Assembly: GCA_008729055.1 (NCBI GenBank)
Contig: SDUX01000010.1
Location: forward strand, 868,001-932,000
DNA length: 64,000 nucleotides
Reading direction: 5' to 3'
Source of the DNA: Pyropia haitanensis
Taxonomy: Eukaryota; Rhodophyta; Bangiophyceae; Bangiales; Bangiaceae
The notes below the pieces were generated by a model, which made no database searches, had not been told where the DNA came from, and saw only the letters and a program-made list of their open reading frames with translations. Position 1 is the first letter of the stretch. Each line of letters begins with the position of its first letter. A program made the translations under genes and the position numbers. Below, one piece after another: positions 21,010 through 26,939 of the stretch.

Positions 21010-22855
21010 ATGGCGGACCAGTCGGCCGAGGTTGCGGCCCGGATGGAGGCGCTCAAGGTGAACGCGGTATGTTGGGGGCGAGCGGGTAACCGATGGCCAG
21101 GTGGGCTGCCCAGGGCAGCATCGTTTCCCAGCTGGATAGGCACTGTGTACCGGATCTATGGGGGGGCGGTGGTGTCGCCTACCAACGCGCGCGTGGTCGG
21201 GGGGACCGCGTCGGTGGAGCCAGCGTGGCGGCCATTCGTTTTGGTGTGGTGCACCCTGCCGTCCTTTTGAGGGCTATCCTGCCGTTTATGTGGTGACTTC
21301 CAGACTGACGCTGTTGCTGTTGTCGACGTCACTGCTTTTGTGTCGCGCTTTGGTTTGGTCGTCTGTTGGTGGTTGGTCACGGGCGCAGGCGGCGGTCAAG
21401 CGCGACTATGTGCTCAAGCCGCGCGTGGACTACCGTACGGTGGCGGCTGTGAACGGTCCGCTGGTCATCCTGGACAAGGTCAAGTTCCCGCGCTACGCCG
21501 AGATTGTCAACTTGACGCTGGGCGACGGCTCCAAGCGCCGCGGCCAGGTGCTGGAGATCAATGGCGACAAGGCGATTGTGCAGGTGTTTGAGGGCACCAC
21601 CGGCATTGACAACAAGAACACGCACTGTGAGTTTACGGGCGAAATCATGAAGACCCCCGTCTCGCGCGACATGCTCGGCCGCATCTTCAACGGGTCGGGC
21701 AAGCCCATTGACGGGGGGCCGCCGGTGGTGCCCGAGGCGTTCCGCGATATTGGTGGGGAGCCCATCAACCCCTTCCGCCGTACCTACCCCGAGGAGATGA
21801 TCCAGACGGGCATCTCCACGATCGACGTGATGAACTCGATTGCGCGTGGCCAAAAGATCCCGCTCTTCTCCGCCGCCGGGCTGCCGCACAACGAGGTCGC
21901 CGCGCAGATCTGTCGCCAGGCCGGGCTGGTGGCCAAGGGGGACAAGAAGGAGGGGGAGGAGGCGGACGGCAGCGGGGAGTTTGCGATTGTGTTTGCGGCG
22001 ATGGGGGTCAACATGGAGACCGCCCGCTTCTTCCGGCAAGACTTTGAGGAGAACGGCGCGATGGAGAAGGTGACGCTCTTCCTCAACCTGGCCAACGACC
22101 CCACCATTGAGCGTATCATTACGCCGCGGCTGGCGCTGACGGCGGCCGAGTACCTGGCGTACGAGTGTGGGAAGCACGTGCTCGTCATCCTGACCGACAT
22201 GTCGTCGTACGCCGACGCGCTGCGTGAGGTGTCAGCCGCCCGCGAGGAGGTGCCCGGCCGGCGTGGCTACCCCGGCTACATGTACACGGATCTGGCGACG
22301 TTGTACGAGCGCGCCGGCCGTGTGGACGGCCGCCCCGGCTCCATCACCCAGCTGCCCATCCTGTCCATGCCCAACGACGACATCACGCATCCCATCCCCG
22401 ATCTGACTGGCTACATTACGGAGGGCCAGATCTTTATCGACCGCCAGCTGCACAACCGGCAAGTGTACCCGCCCATCAACGTGCTGCCGTCGCTGTCCCG
22501 GTTGATGAAGTCGGCTATTGGGGAGGGGATGACCCGCAAGGACCACGGCGACGTGTCCAACCAGCTGTACGCGGGCTACGCCATTGGCAAGGACGTCCTC
22601 GCGATGAAGGCGGTGGTGGGGGAGGAGGCGCTGTCGGCCGAGGACCGGCTGTACCTCGAGTTCCACGACCGCTTTGAGGCCTCGTTTGTCACGCAGGGCG
22701 CGTACGAGACGCGGACGATTGAGGAGAGCCTGGACCTGGCGTGGCGCCTGCTGCGGACGTTCCCCAAGCAGTTGCTCAAGCGGATTCCGGAGAAGACGCT
22801 CAACGTCTACTACCACCGCCGGGGCGCCGAGACGGAGGAGGCGGCGCAATCGTAG
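21010..22855 (+). CDS. VMA2: V-type proton ATPase subunit B
   Basis: Non-catalytic nucleotide-binding subunit of the V1 sector; together with subunit A it forms the ATP-driven hexamer of the vacuolar/endomembrane proton pump. There are two exons: 21010-21066 (19 codons) and 21389-22855, with a phase-0 intron at 21067-21388 (GTATGT...GCAG). The 507-residue product matches the family length. Visible family blocks are [57 protein letters not shown], the degenerate P-loop region typical of subunit B, and a C-terminal [13 protein letters not shown]. Unlike its neighbours it has no frame break, no long homopolymer and few low-complexity inserts, apart from a short Lys/Glu loop after QAGLVAKG. The start has a good context (GACGTCATGGC). 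Confidence 0.97.
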
Positions 22856-23600: not shown

Positions 23601-24836
23601 TCACGCCACCCGCCGGATGAGCGTCAGCCCGTCGCGCATCGGCAGCAGCACCTGCTCCGTCCGCGCGTCGGCGGCAACGCGCTCGTTAAACGCGTGGATG
23701 GCCGCCGCGGTGCGGTTGGCGGCGACCAGGCTCCGCGCCCGCTGCCGCCGCAGCCGCGCCACGTCCCCCTCTGCCGGCGGCGGCGTCGCGGCCGCCGCGG
23801 CGTCAATGCCCGCCTCGGACTCTGGGGTGGCCCCACCGCCGGCGGCGGTGTCGCCCCAGTACTGGACGACGCGGCCCTTGAAGAGCACATTGTCCACCGC
23901 CAGCAGGCCGCCCACCCGCAGCAGCCCGCCGCCAATGCAGCGCTCGTAGTAGTCGGCGTACGCCTTCTTGTCCGCGTCAACGTACACGAGGTCAAACGGC
24001 GCTTCCGCGGCGGCGGCCATGGCGTCCATCGCGTCGAGGGCGGGCCCGACGCGGAGGTCAATCGGCGCGCCGCTGTCGCGCGACGCAAACGCGTCGGCCG
24101 CCGTCGCGGCGACCGCCGCGTCGCGCTCGAGCGTCACCACCACCCCCCCCGCGGGGACGGCCGCCGCCATCGCGACGGCGGCGTAGCCCGTAAAGGTGCC
24201 CACCTCGAGCACCCGCTTGGCGGCGGTGAGCGAGACGAGCATGGCCAGCAGCGCGCCCTGCGAGCGCCCGCTGAGCATGTGCGCGCGGCCGGGGGCGGCC
24301 GCGTCGGTCGCCGCCCGCACCGCCGCCGCCGCCGGGTCCTCGGCCGCCGAGTAGGCGTCGGCGTAGGCGTCGATGGAGGCGGCCCAGGCAGACGCGTGCG
24401 GCAGCGGCAGCGGCGGCGGCGGCCGCCGCCCGCCCGCCGCGGCCGCCGTCGTGGCCGCCGCCGCCGCCAGTGGCGGCGACGACGACGACGGCGCAACGGT
24501 TGCGGCGGCGGCTGGCGGCGCGGCGGCCGCGGCGGCGGCCGCGGCCGCGGCGTCGGCGCGCACCGCGTCGCGGCACGCGACGCTGCACGCCCCCCCAAAC
24601 GCCGCCGCGCAGTCCTCGCACTGGACAAAGACGCGCGCCGCAAACGGCCGCGGGCAGCGGACGTTGCGGCAGTCGGTCTGGGCCGACCAGGGCGTCCCGC
24701 AGTTGACGCACGCCGCGAGCGCGTCGTCGGTGATGGCCTCCCCCATCCGGCCGTCAAAGACGTGGAGGGTGCCGCGGAAGAGCGACGACGCCTTGCCGCC
24801 GCCGCCGCCGCGTTTGGGGTCCCGGCCGGGGGGGGA

Positions 24837-24876
<40 letters not shown>

Positions 24877-26706
24877 CGCCGCCGCCACCCCCAGCAGAGG
24901 GCGACGGCGAGCGCGCGCCGCCAGACGACGACGCCCACGGCGCGTCACCGCCGGGGATGCCGCCGCCGCCGCCGCCGCCCGCGGCGCCCGCCCCCCCGGC
25001 GGCGCCAGCGCCGCCATCGTTGCCGGCACGTGGACGGCCCGCGGGGCGTCGAAGACCCCCCCGCCGCCCCCCCCCCCCACCTGCCCGCCTCCGCTCCCCC
25101 CAGCCGCCGCCGGCGCCACCCCGTCCAGCTCCCCCGCCCGCAGCGCGCGCGCGTACGACACGACCCCCCCCCGCAGGCGCCCGACATTGTCAAAGCCCAG
25201 CACCTGCCCCAGGTACGCCCCCACCTTGACGCACCGGATGCCGCCCGTACAGTAGGTGAGCACCCGCCGCCGCCGGTCGACACCGTCGAGGCGGGCGGCG
25301 AGCGCGGCCCAGGTGTCGGGGAAGGCCGCCGTGTCGAGCGGCACCGCGCCGTCAAAGCGGCCAACGTCCGACTCGTAGCCGTTGCGGCAGTCGAGGACAA
25401 TGGGCGGCAGGGTGGCGGCGTCAGCGGCGGCTGCCGCCGCGGCCGCCCCAGCCGCCGCCTCTGGGTCGTCGGCGGCCACAGCGGCGGCGGCGGCCGCCGC
25501 CGCCGCCGCCGACGCGGGCGCCGCCGTGGCCGACAGCTCGGCGTGCCACTGCGCGGGCGACACCTCCTCCCCCGCCGCGGACCAGTCCAGGTCGAGGCCC
25601 GCGCCCTCGGGCGCCGGCGTCGACGTCGCGGCGGGGCCGTAGGAGAAGCCGTCGGCGAGCACCTGGTGCCGCGCGCGCACGTGGAGCGCCTCAAATGGCA
25701 CCTCCTCGGCGAGCGACACGACGCGGTCCCGGTTGACATAGACGCCGCGGAGCTCGGCGGGGACGGCGTAGTAGGCGCGCGCGGCGGCCTCGTCTTCCCC
25801 CCCACCCACAGCCGCCACAGGCGGCGTCGCCGCCGCGGCCACTGCGCTACCGCCCGCGCCGCCCCGCGTCGACGCCTCGGCCGCCGCGGCCGCCGCGGCG
25901 ACCGCCGCCATCACCGCCGCCGGCGGGTGGCCGTCCCCCCCCTCCCCCAGCGCCGCCACAAACGCCTCCACCGTCTGCACGGGCACCGCCATCTGCGCGT
26001 TGACGCCCTCCGCCGCCACGTACACGCGACCCGTCGCGCCGTACACCCCCCACACCCGTGACAGCGTCGCGGCGAGCGCGCCCGCGTCGGCAACGGGCAT
26101 GAACCGGTAAAACGACAGCGCCTCCACCGCCGTCACGCCCGTGCCGCCCGCGGCGAGCGCCGCGGCCAGCGGCGCCATGGACGCGGGCACGCCGGGCGGC
26201 GCGGCGGGCAGCTCCACGCTGACGTACAGGTCGGTGCCCGCCGCGTCGGCGGCGGCGACGGCGGCGGCCAGCTGGGCGACGCTGCCCAGGCGGGTGCCGC
26301 CGGGGAGGACCGCGACGAGCGCCGGCCGGCCGCCGCCATCGTCCGTGGCGGGGAGGAGGCCCTTGCGCGCCAGCGCGGGCGCGGCGGCGACGAGGCCGTC
26401 GCGGATCGCCGACAGGACGGGCGCGAGCGACGCGGCGGGGCGGGTGGGAGCGCCGTCGCCGCCGCCGTCGGCGGGGGAGGGGGAGGGGAAGAGGAGGGCG
26501 CGGGGGATGTCGACGCGCCGCCGGACGAGGCGGCGCGGGAGGCCGAGGCGGCGGCGGAGGTCGGGCGGGATGCTCACCCGCAGGGTGGCCGTCGCGCGCG
26601 CCCCCGGGGGGGGGGTTGCGCCAGGGGGGGGGTGCCCCGAGCCGACGGCGACGGCAGCCGCCGCGGCCGGGCGGCGCGGCTGTGCCGGCCGCCTTGGTTG
26701 CCAGCG

Positions 26707-26741
<35 letters not shown>

Positions 26742-26939
26742 TGGCCAGGGAAAGGGCGCCGGCGGCTGCTGGGCGAGCGACGCGGCCGGCGGCGCCGCCG
26801 ACGCGGCGCGGCGGCCGCGGCGGGCCGGCAGGCCGCCGCGTCGGCGGCCGCCGGCGGCGAGGGCGGGCAGCGAGCGGAGGAGCGGCAGCGGCCGCCGCGG
26901 CGCCAGCGCGGCCGACGCGACGACCGCAAAGGCCGACAT
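23601..26939 (-). CDS. Organelle-leader TrhO-type tRNA U34 hydroxylase fused to an O-methyltransferase
   Basis: Predicted bifunctional tRNA-modifying enzyme. The start at 26939 opens a leader (MSAFAVVASAALAPRRPLPL) rich in Ala/Arg/Ser, as in plastid or mitochondrial import signals. The TrhO/UPF0176 part follows: GRVYVAAEGVNAQMAVP, the rhodanese fold with IVLDCRNGYESDVG and active-site loop YCTGGIRC, then the family's zinc-type tail (CVNCG, CRNVRCPRPF, CEDC, CSVAC). The last 300 residues are a class I O-methyltransferase of the CCoAOMT/YrrM type: VLEVGTFTGYAAVAMA (SAM motif), DLVYVDADKKAYADYY, LLAVDNVLFKGRV, LLPMRDGLTLIRR. In bacteria TrhO makes 5-hydroxyuridine at U34 and TrmR (YrrM) methylates it. 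Frame changes occur at G10/G9 26606-26632 and around C7 24991-24997 and G8 24828-24835. No stop codon separates the zinc tail and the methyltransferase, which share a frame. The TrhO call is firm; the linked pathway is inference. Confidence 0.85.

What the first reader, a model, noticed from the sequence alone, without database searches (positions are those of the whole stretch)
23601..26939. One gene joins a TrhO-type tRNA hydroxylase to a TrmR-like O-methyltransferase
Seen: the rhodanese loop YCTGGIRC, the TrhO zinc tail, then SAM motif VLEVGTFTGYAAVAMA and VDADKK/DNVLFKG on the same strand. No stop separates the zinc tail and the methyltransferase, and a leader peptide is at the start. Known: in bacteria TrhO makes 5-hydroxyuridine at tRNA U34, and TrmR (YrrM), a methyltransferase of this fold, converts it to 5-methoxyuridine. 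Inference: a eukaryote has fused the two consecutive steps into one organelle-targeted enzyme that sets wobble decoding in plastid or mitochondrion.
Basis: partly seen in the sequence, partly recalled or inferred. Interest (0 to 1): 0.88.

Follow-up and report, generated by a model that had tools for sequence, protein, structure and literature searches.

The report
Fused tRNA wobble-modifying enzyme, red seaweed
A red-seaweed gene carries, side by side, a predicted tRNA hydroxylase and a methyltransferase that would together put a 5-methoxy group on the wobble base of tRNAs, probably inside the plastid; fusions of this kind were already reported in a diatom and in water moulds, but the methyltransferase half does not group with the bacterial enzyme (TrmR) it was named after.

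Summary
The finding is real but not new in kind. On the minus strand, 26939-23601 encodes UPF0176_N, rhodanese (CTGGIRC), the Cys-rich TrhO tail and a Methyltransf_3 domain. Tail and methyltransferase share one open frame. Leader, TrhO core and tail lie in three frames, however; each switch falls on a run of 7 or more identical bases, and a Pyropia relative reads through, so assembly indels are likelier than introns. Sakai et al. 2019 already reported TrhO-'TrmR' fusions in two Phytophthora species and Phaeodactylum. I find the same architecture in red algae, diatoms, Phaeothamnion and Vitrella. The residues tested as essential in E. coli TrhO are kept. The methyltransferase half forms its own clade: placing it with TrmR is rejected (AU p 0.020), placing it with the SynOMT/COMTD1/CCoAOMT group is not. 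Independent support for the pairing: in Pelagibacterales, 47 of 54 genomes with a related methyltransferase hit have it 2-8 bases upstream of trhO. About half of the red-algal-type copies, and some diatom-type ones, start like plastid-imported proteins. Best reading: one enzyme likely makes 5-methoxyuridine-34, predicted in plastid tRNAs. Brown-algal copies keep the TrhO loop but seem to have a decayed methyltransferase half.

The parts
26606..26939 (-). N-terminal leader: Ala/Arg-rich, begins MSAFAVVASAAL; plastid-type (Phe near the start) or mitochondrial
   Evidence: sequence; homologous to residues 1-116 of P. vietnamensis P0002
24991..24997 (-). run of seven G at which the TrhO-core frame passes into the third frame
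24828..24835 (-). run of eight C at which the third frame passes into the tail/methyltransferase frame
26606..26632 (-). C9 and C10 runs at which the leader frame passes into the TrhO-core frame
26161..26598 (-). extra conserved N-terminal domain without a Pfam match, before UPF0176_N; alternating strands and helices in the Chondrus model
25945..26121 (-). UPF0176_N acylphosphatase-like domain of TrhO
   Evidence: Pfam PF17773, 54.2 bits
25147..25410 (-). rhodanese domain
   Evidence: Pfam PF00581, 30.1 bits
25231..25251 (-). active-site loop CTGGIRC (E. coli TrhO C200-C206)
24570..24776 (-). Cys-rich TrhO tail (Rhodanese_C)
   Evidence: Pfam PF12368, 48.8 bits
23604..24350 (-). O-methyltransferase half (Methyltransf_3; best Pfam stretch 24350-23862, then to the stop)
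   Evidence: Pfam PF01596, 153.9 bits
24183..24206 (-). SAM motif EVGTFTGY
   Evidence: sequence; tally
23964..23978 (-). DADKK: predicted metal ligand and catalytic Lys (roles by recalled analogy with COMT)
   Evidence: sequence; first D and K present in 44 of 44 aligned fusions
23874..23894 (-). DNVLFKG: predicted metal ligands D and N (by recalled analogy with COMT)
   Evidence: sequence; D and N present in 44 of 44
23712..23762 (-). basic insertion-loop segment VARLRRQRARSLVAANR

Best explanation
The gene encodes a TrhO-type half that likely hydroxylates U34 of organellar tRNAs and an O-methyltransferase half that would turn the product into 5-methoxyuridine, in what is probably one protein predicted to work in the plastid. 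Shown here: the domains, the conserved active-site residues, the same fusion in many algae, the single clade of the methyltransferase halves, and the conserved methyltransferase-trhO gene pair in Pelagibacterales. Inferred: that the window's three frames are one protein; that TrhO's rhodanese loop makes ho5U34 with oxygen as in E. coli; that the methyltransferase, a predicted metal- and SAM-dependent catechol-type enzyme, sees ho5U as a catechol-like enol and methylates it; that it gained tRNA access partly through its basic insertion loop and partly by being tethered to TrhO, instead of inheriting it from TrmR; that mo5U34 helps the single U34 tRNAs of family boxes such as Ala and Pro to read U- and G-ending codons in the plastid.
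Against: No activity, transcript or tRNA modification was measured. The reading frame is broken three times in this assembly. The methyltransferase half does not group with TrmR, which is reported to act on ho5U-tRNA; a catechol-type relative, Rv0187, methylates free ho5U but showed no significant activity on ho5U-tRNA (data not shown there; PMC6543040 passages). Outside Pelagibacteraceae none of the other 73 loci has TrhO within the fetched flanks at E 1e-5. 7 of the 54 Pelagibacterales methyltransferase hits are not beside trhO, and 37 of the 84 genomes with trhO showed no such neighbour at this sensitivity. The Pelagibacterales methyltransferase sits in the SynOMT/COMTD1 clade, not in the fusion clade, so that link is by analogy; 3 of 5 such rows lack the basic loop, and 2 of 8 parsed SynOMT-group rows have it. 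Oomycetes, which have no plastid (recalled), also have the fusion (Sakai). Several named diatom copies (Cylindrotheca, Cyclotella, Nitzschia, Fistulifera) show no hydrophobic signal stretch in the deposited model.
Confidence: 0.58

Rival explanations
1. The same bifunctional enzyme, but acting in the mitochondrion (or in both organelles) instead of the plastid.
For: Arg- and Ala-rich leader without acidic residues in its first part fits a mitochondrial presequence. Phytophthora, without a plastid, has the fusion (PMC6599085). Named diatom copies of Cylindrotheca and Nitzschia have no hydrophobic signal stretch in their models.
Against: F[VIA][PAS] starts in 16 of 31 florideophyte-like copies, and a hydrophobic stretch followed by A/S/G/T-F in 21 of 190 hits, match plastid signals (PMC2222254, PMC12136025).
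Confidence: 0.22
2. The methyltransferase half does not modify tRNA: it methylates a small catechol-like metabolite, or another hydroxylated RNA base, and the fusion is a regulatory or targeting convenience.
For: It lies outside TrmR (AU p 0.020 for fusion plus TrmR) and a grouping with SynOMT/COMTD1/CCoAOMT is not rejected (p 0.206). Rv0187 takes several catechols and free ho5U, not ho5U-tRNA (PMC6543040 passages).
Against: Fusion and, independently, a two-gene operon pair such enzymes with TrhO; basic loop in 102 of 117 parsed fusions; first and second step of one pathway is what the pairing predicts.
Confidence: 0.13
3. In this alga the gene is broken, or is two genes, and makes no fused protein.
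For: Three frame switches in the assembly.
Against: All three lie in runs of 7 or more identical bases, tail and methyltransferase share one frame, the two long pieces are 70% and 80% identical to P. vietnamensis P0002, and P0002 and P0001 are predicted as single proteins.
Confidence: 0.04
4. The TrhO half is a sulfurtransferase, not a hydroxylase.
For: Rhodanese fold and Cys loop.
Against: Full TrhO architecture with UPF0176_N, Rhodanese_C and the basic strand positions required in E. coli.
Confidence: 0.03

Closest known systems
yceA(trhO)-trmR fusion genes of Phytophthora sojae, P. ramorum and Phaeodactylum tricornutum (Sakai et al. 2019, PMC6599085)
   Same: Same two enzymes in one gene; the fusion was one of their clues to TrhO (section 8 read).
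   Different: In the section and passages I saw, the fusion is given in one sentence and a figure legend (the organisms called bacterial species), without analysis of the methyltransferase, leader or range; here the clade is traced to red algae and its methyltransferase half is separated from TrmR. I did not retrieve the Phytophthora or Phaeodactylum sequences by name.
E. coli and B. subtilis TrhO (YceA, YbfQ; PDB 9j5o)
   Same: UPF0176_N, rhodanese CTGGIR/CTGGVR loop, Cys-rich tail; the tested essential residues of E. coli are kept.
   Different: Free-standing in these bacteria; the algal half has an extra N-terminal domain and a methyltransferase behind it.
B. subtilis TrmR (YrrM; PDB 5zw3, 5zw4)
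   Same: Methyltransf_3-type fold, basic loop before the last helix, expected product mo5U34.
   Different: Different clade; 98 bits against the fusion profile versus 187 for 3tr6 and 183 for SynOMT.
SynOMT, COMTD1, SafC, CCoAOMT group
   Same: Among the closest solved structures by sequence and by fold.
   Different: Small-molecule or unknown substrates (recalled, in part); usually a shorter, less basic loop. Held together with the fusions the tree is worse but not rejected (p 0.206).
Pelagibacterales methyltransferase-trhO gene pair (found here)
   Same: Same two enzyme families paired, as adjacent genes.
   Different: Two proteins; methyltransferase from another subgroup.

Membership tests
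TrhO | UPF0176_N + rhodanese + Rhodanese_C | tested here: met
   54.2, 30.1 and 48.8 bits, all above cut-off
TrhO | residues required in E. coli (C200, T201, G203, R205; basic 112 and 114) | tested here: met
   alignment, requirement read in PMC6599085 passages
TrhO | NCBIfam TrhO equivalog score | tested here: inconclusive
   NF001133 is the best hit but at 114 bits under its cut-off of 170, with the protein cut by the frame switches
TrhO | makes ho5U34 | not testable with these tools
   needs assay
TrmR | Methyltransf_3 with metal and Lys residues | tested here: met
TrmR | groups with B. subtilis TrmR | tested here: not met
   TrmR rows apart at 100/97; fusion plus TrmR rejected, p 0.020. 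An earlier tree with fewer TrmR rows put TrmR beside the fusions on a long branch
TrmR | methylates ho5U34 in tRNA | not testable with these tools
   needs assay
CCoAOMT / SynOMT / COMTD1 | groups with this clade | tested here: inconclusive
   best tree separates them (97/90), AU p 0.206
TrhO-methyltransferase fusion of Sakai et al. | TrhO followed by an O-methyltransferase in one gene, one clade | tested here: met
   both domains in 120 of 120 listed hits; 25 rows (24 fusions and one unfused Tetraparma model) one clade, 91/85; the Phytophthora and Phaeodactylum genes themselves not retrieved
plastid-targeted protein | import shown or predicted by a trained program | not tested
   only motif and hydrophobicity counts

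The most novel reading that the evidence does not exclude
Red-lineage plastids decode family boxes with 5-methoxyuridine-34 made by one bifunctional enzyme whose methyltransferase was recruited from a catechol-type bacterial lineage, independently of TrmR, and gained tRNA access by fusion to the hydroxylase; a second, equally independent pairing in Pelagibacterales predicts the same base in one of the ocean's most abundant bacterial groups; brown algae have since lost the methylation step while keeping the hydroxylase.
Probability: 0.4. Interest if true: 0.74.

Novelty: new member of a known kind. Interest (0 to 1): 0.5.

Why it matters
Sakai et al. wrote that TrhO homologues in eukaryotes suggest an xo5U-type modification there (passage). 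This gene family names an enzyme, a likely organelle and the tRNAs to look at, in seaweeds and diatoms that can be grown. It also shows that 'TrmR' in the published description of such fusions probably stands for a different lineage, so mo5U34 synthesis may have arisen more than once, and that an O-methyltransferase beside trhO in Pelagibacterales is a strong candidate for the same step.

Tried and rejected
Rejected: introns as the cause of the frame switches (the P. vietnamensis protein aligns across them without a missing block). Rejected: a 'triple fusion' suggested by precomputed PF03602 labels; a fresh scan of P0036 puts PF03602 on the Methyltransf_3 region itself. Rejected: TrmR next to the fusions (tree, long branches meeting); adding Bacteroidota and cyanobacterial rows found with a TrmR profile moved TrmR away. 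Led nowhere: plastid or mitochondrial contigs in this assembly (PF00124 and PF00115: no match), so its organellar tRNAs could not be read; the single-sequence fold of the window's extra N-terminal domain (mean pLDDT 42.8) was too poor to search; no solved structure covering that domain appeared in the rows shown, which are filled by the other domains. COMTD1 as a tRNA enzyme: 14 papers hold both words (listing); the passages of PMC11514484 that I read give no such role. Searches for the fusion in print: (TrmR + TrhO + fused: only Sakai et al.); Pelagibacter + 5-methoxyuridine: none. TSTD2 was seen as a listing only. Label error: tree rows named Rv0187_5lhm in the scripts are SafC of Myxococcus; Rv0187 itself (6jcl) was not in the trees.

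Full report
What is in the sequence. On the minus strand the window holds a leader starting at the ATG at 26939, a conserved N-terminal domain, UPF0176_N, a rhodanese domain with YCTGGIRC, a Cys-rich Rhodanese_C tail and a Methyltransf_3 domain, ending at TGA 23603-23601. The tail and the methyltransferase share the open frame 24944-23601. Aligned with the 1088-aa P. vietnamensis protein, the window matches 70% over the core piece and 80% over the tail-methyltransferase piece, the switches fall on runs C9/C10, G7 and C8, and no block is missing. Indels in the assembly are therefore likelier than introns; I cannot prove it without reads. The genome (52.9 Mb; 72% G+C in the window) is unnamed; a Bangiales red alga is inferred from these matches.

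How widespread. A search with the joined protein found 168 proteins at E 0.001 or better among 7995 scored candidates; of the 120 listed, 120 carry PF17773 and PF01596 and 118 also PF00581 or PF12368 (my count from the listing). Named ones are Pyropia, Chondrus, Agarophyton, Gracilaria, Gracilariopsis, Phaeothamnion and diatoms; a second search adds Rhodosorus, Vitrella and more diatoms. Sakai et al. 2019 had reported the fusion in two Phytophthora species and Phaeodactylum (section 8 read), so the kind is known.

Is the hydroxylase half competent? E. coli trhO was fetched and aligned. Every loop residue that Sakai et al. found essential is present, and both basic strand positions are basic (for the passages). 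120 of 121 fusions keep CTGGIRC; the exception, P0034, has a gap there. Two family searches each give one TrhO match in this genome, and the methyltransferase family search gives four (six-frame searches, lower bounds), one of them fused to a dehydroquinate-synthase-like domain.

What is the methyltransferase half? By sequence it is nearer to 3tr6 and SynOMT (187 and 183 bits) than to TrmR (98 bits). A first tree (86 rows) placed TrmR beside the fusions, with a warning that long branches met. After adding rows from Bacteroidota and cyanobacteria found with a TrmR profile the second tree (94 rows) shows the fusions as one clade (91/85, one unfused Tetraparma model included) inside a broad bacterial group (99/98), apart from TrmR (100/97) and from the SynOMT/COMTD1/SafC/CCoAOMT/SAR11 group (97/90). 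Holding fusions with TrmR is rejected at p 0.020, which is modest and made on a tree already seen; holding them with the SynOMT group is not rejected, p 0.206. So 'not with TrmR, and not shown to be with CCoAOMT' is the fair statement. The fused halves do carry a basic loop at the place where TrmR has PKRRRRL: at least five K/R in the last 25 residues before the FN motif in 102 of 117 parsed fusions, 2 of 3 parsed TrmR, 2 of 5 TrmR-like, 2 of 5 SAR11, 2 of 8 parsed SynOMT-group and 3 of 32 parsed other bacterial rows (unparsed: 4, 1, 0, 0, 3 and 2; the parsing is by motif). In TrmR and in a Bacillus relative the insertion loop becomes ordered when substrate binds (PMC6543040 passage). The same paper reports that Rv0187, a catechol-type enzyme, methylates free ho5U but not ho5U-tRNA, and that TrmR has no significant activity on free ho5U (data not shown there). 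This makes the chemistry plausible for a catechol-type domain and leaves tRNA recognition as the open point; tethering to TrhO and the basic loop are my proposed solution.

Independent evidence for the pairing. Of 80 bacterial loci found with the fused methyltransferase halves (the best 80 kept of 575), 7 of 7 Pelagibacteraceae loci have TrhO directly downstream; none of the other 73 do within the fetched flanks at E 1e-5. In 97 Pelagibacterales genomes TrhO was found in 84 and the methyltransferase in 54; in 47 of the 54 it lies 2 to 8 bases before trhO on the same strand (one of these cut by a contig end), and in 7 it does not. In L031 the order is gatA, gatB, methyltransferase, trhO. Co-occurrence elsewhere is mixed: Rhodanese_C was found in 21 of 34 genomes tested (34 of the 80 loci given), 7 of these being Pelagibacteraceae.

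Where it acts. Florideophyte-like copies (a set of 31 that I chose by their rank, several without a leader) often have F[VIA][PAS] close to the start, 16 of 31; of 190 TrhO-bearing hits that start with M, 36 have a hydrophobic stretch and 21 of these an A/S/G/T-F after it. Such Phe motifs mark plastid precursors in Porphyra yezoensis (PMC2222254, passage) and in diatoms (PMC12136025, passages). The Pyropia-type leader here has a Phe at position 4. Most plastids have a U34 tRNA as the only tRNA for the Ala and Pro boxes (all 38 genomes have tRNAs for GCA and CCA, 3 and 4 have one for GCC and CCC; PMC4873144 section 13), which is where xo5U would help; that table is not specific to red algae. 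Against an exclusive plastid role stand the oomycete fusions and the diatom models without a signal stretch.

A natural experiment. In Ectocarpus, Scytosiphon and Tribonema the TrhO loop and tail are intact but the C-terminal half has lost the SAM, DADK and DN motifs, and a profile of the fused methyltransferases barely finds it (E 0.003 for Scytosiphon, 0.17 for Ectocarpus, 1.4 for Tribonema). Of the 22 listed hits without PF01596 that I checked, 5 carry the first part of a normal methyltransferase (E 1e-39 to 1e-45, truncated models) and 2 a short piece of one; the rest have a decayed half or none. That the brown-algal tails are decayed halves rather than unrelated is an inference from position and residual pattern.

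Verdict. What I add is the red-algal breadth, the placement of the methyltransferase, the plastid-type leaders, the Pelagibacterales gene pair and the brown-algal decay. The listings and passages that I saw mention none of these; most subscription papers are not held.

Noticed in passing
P0241, P0243, P0244, P0245 (one search hits): Tribonema, brown algae and a EukProt entry keep TrhO but the C-terminal methyltransferase-like half has lost its SAM and metal motifs; the EukProt entry also has a thioredoxin domain in front.
   Followed up: partly
L031 2947-7439 and Pelagibacterales genomes: Gene order gatA-gatB-O-methyltransferase-trhO in L031; methyltransferase and trhO 2-8 bases apart in 47 of 54 genomes.
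   Followed up: yes
window 26161-26598: Conserved N-terminal domain before UPF0176_N in the fusions, no Pfam match, alternating strands and helices in the Chondrus model.
   Followed up: partly
L001 (G000:C4:1243059-1246619): Another fusion in the same genome: dehydroquinate-synthase-like domain plus Methyltransf_3, recalled to resemble the mycosporine MysA-MysB fusion of red algae.
   Followed up: partly
P0278: A fused copy from a EukProt set of unclear organism; if not from an alga it would widen the range of the fusion.
   Followed up: no
G001 contig C59 265600-266440: In Aliterella an O-methyltransferase hit lies next to, and convergent with, a weak Rhodanese_C hit.
   Followed up: no
window 21299-22852 +: Neighbouring V-type ATPase subunit with ATP-synt_ab and ATP-synt_VA_C domains.
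   Followed up: no
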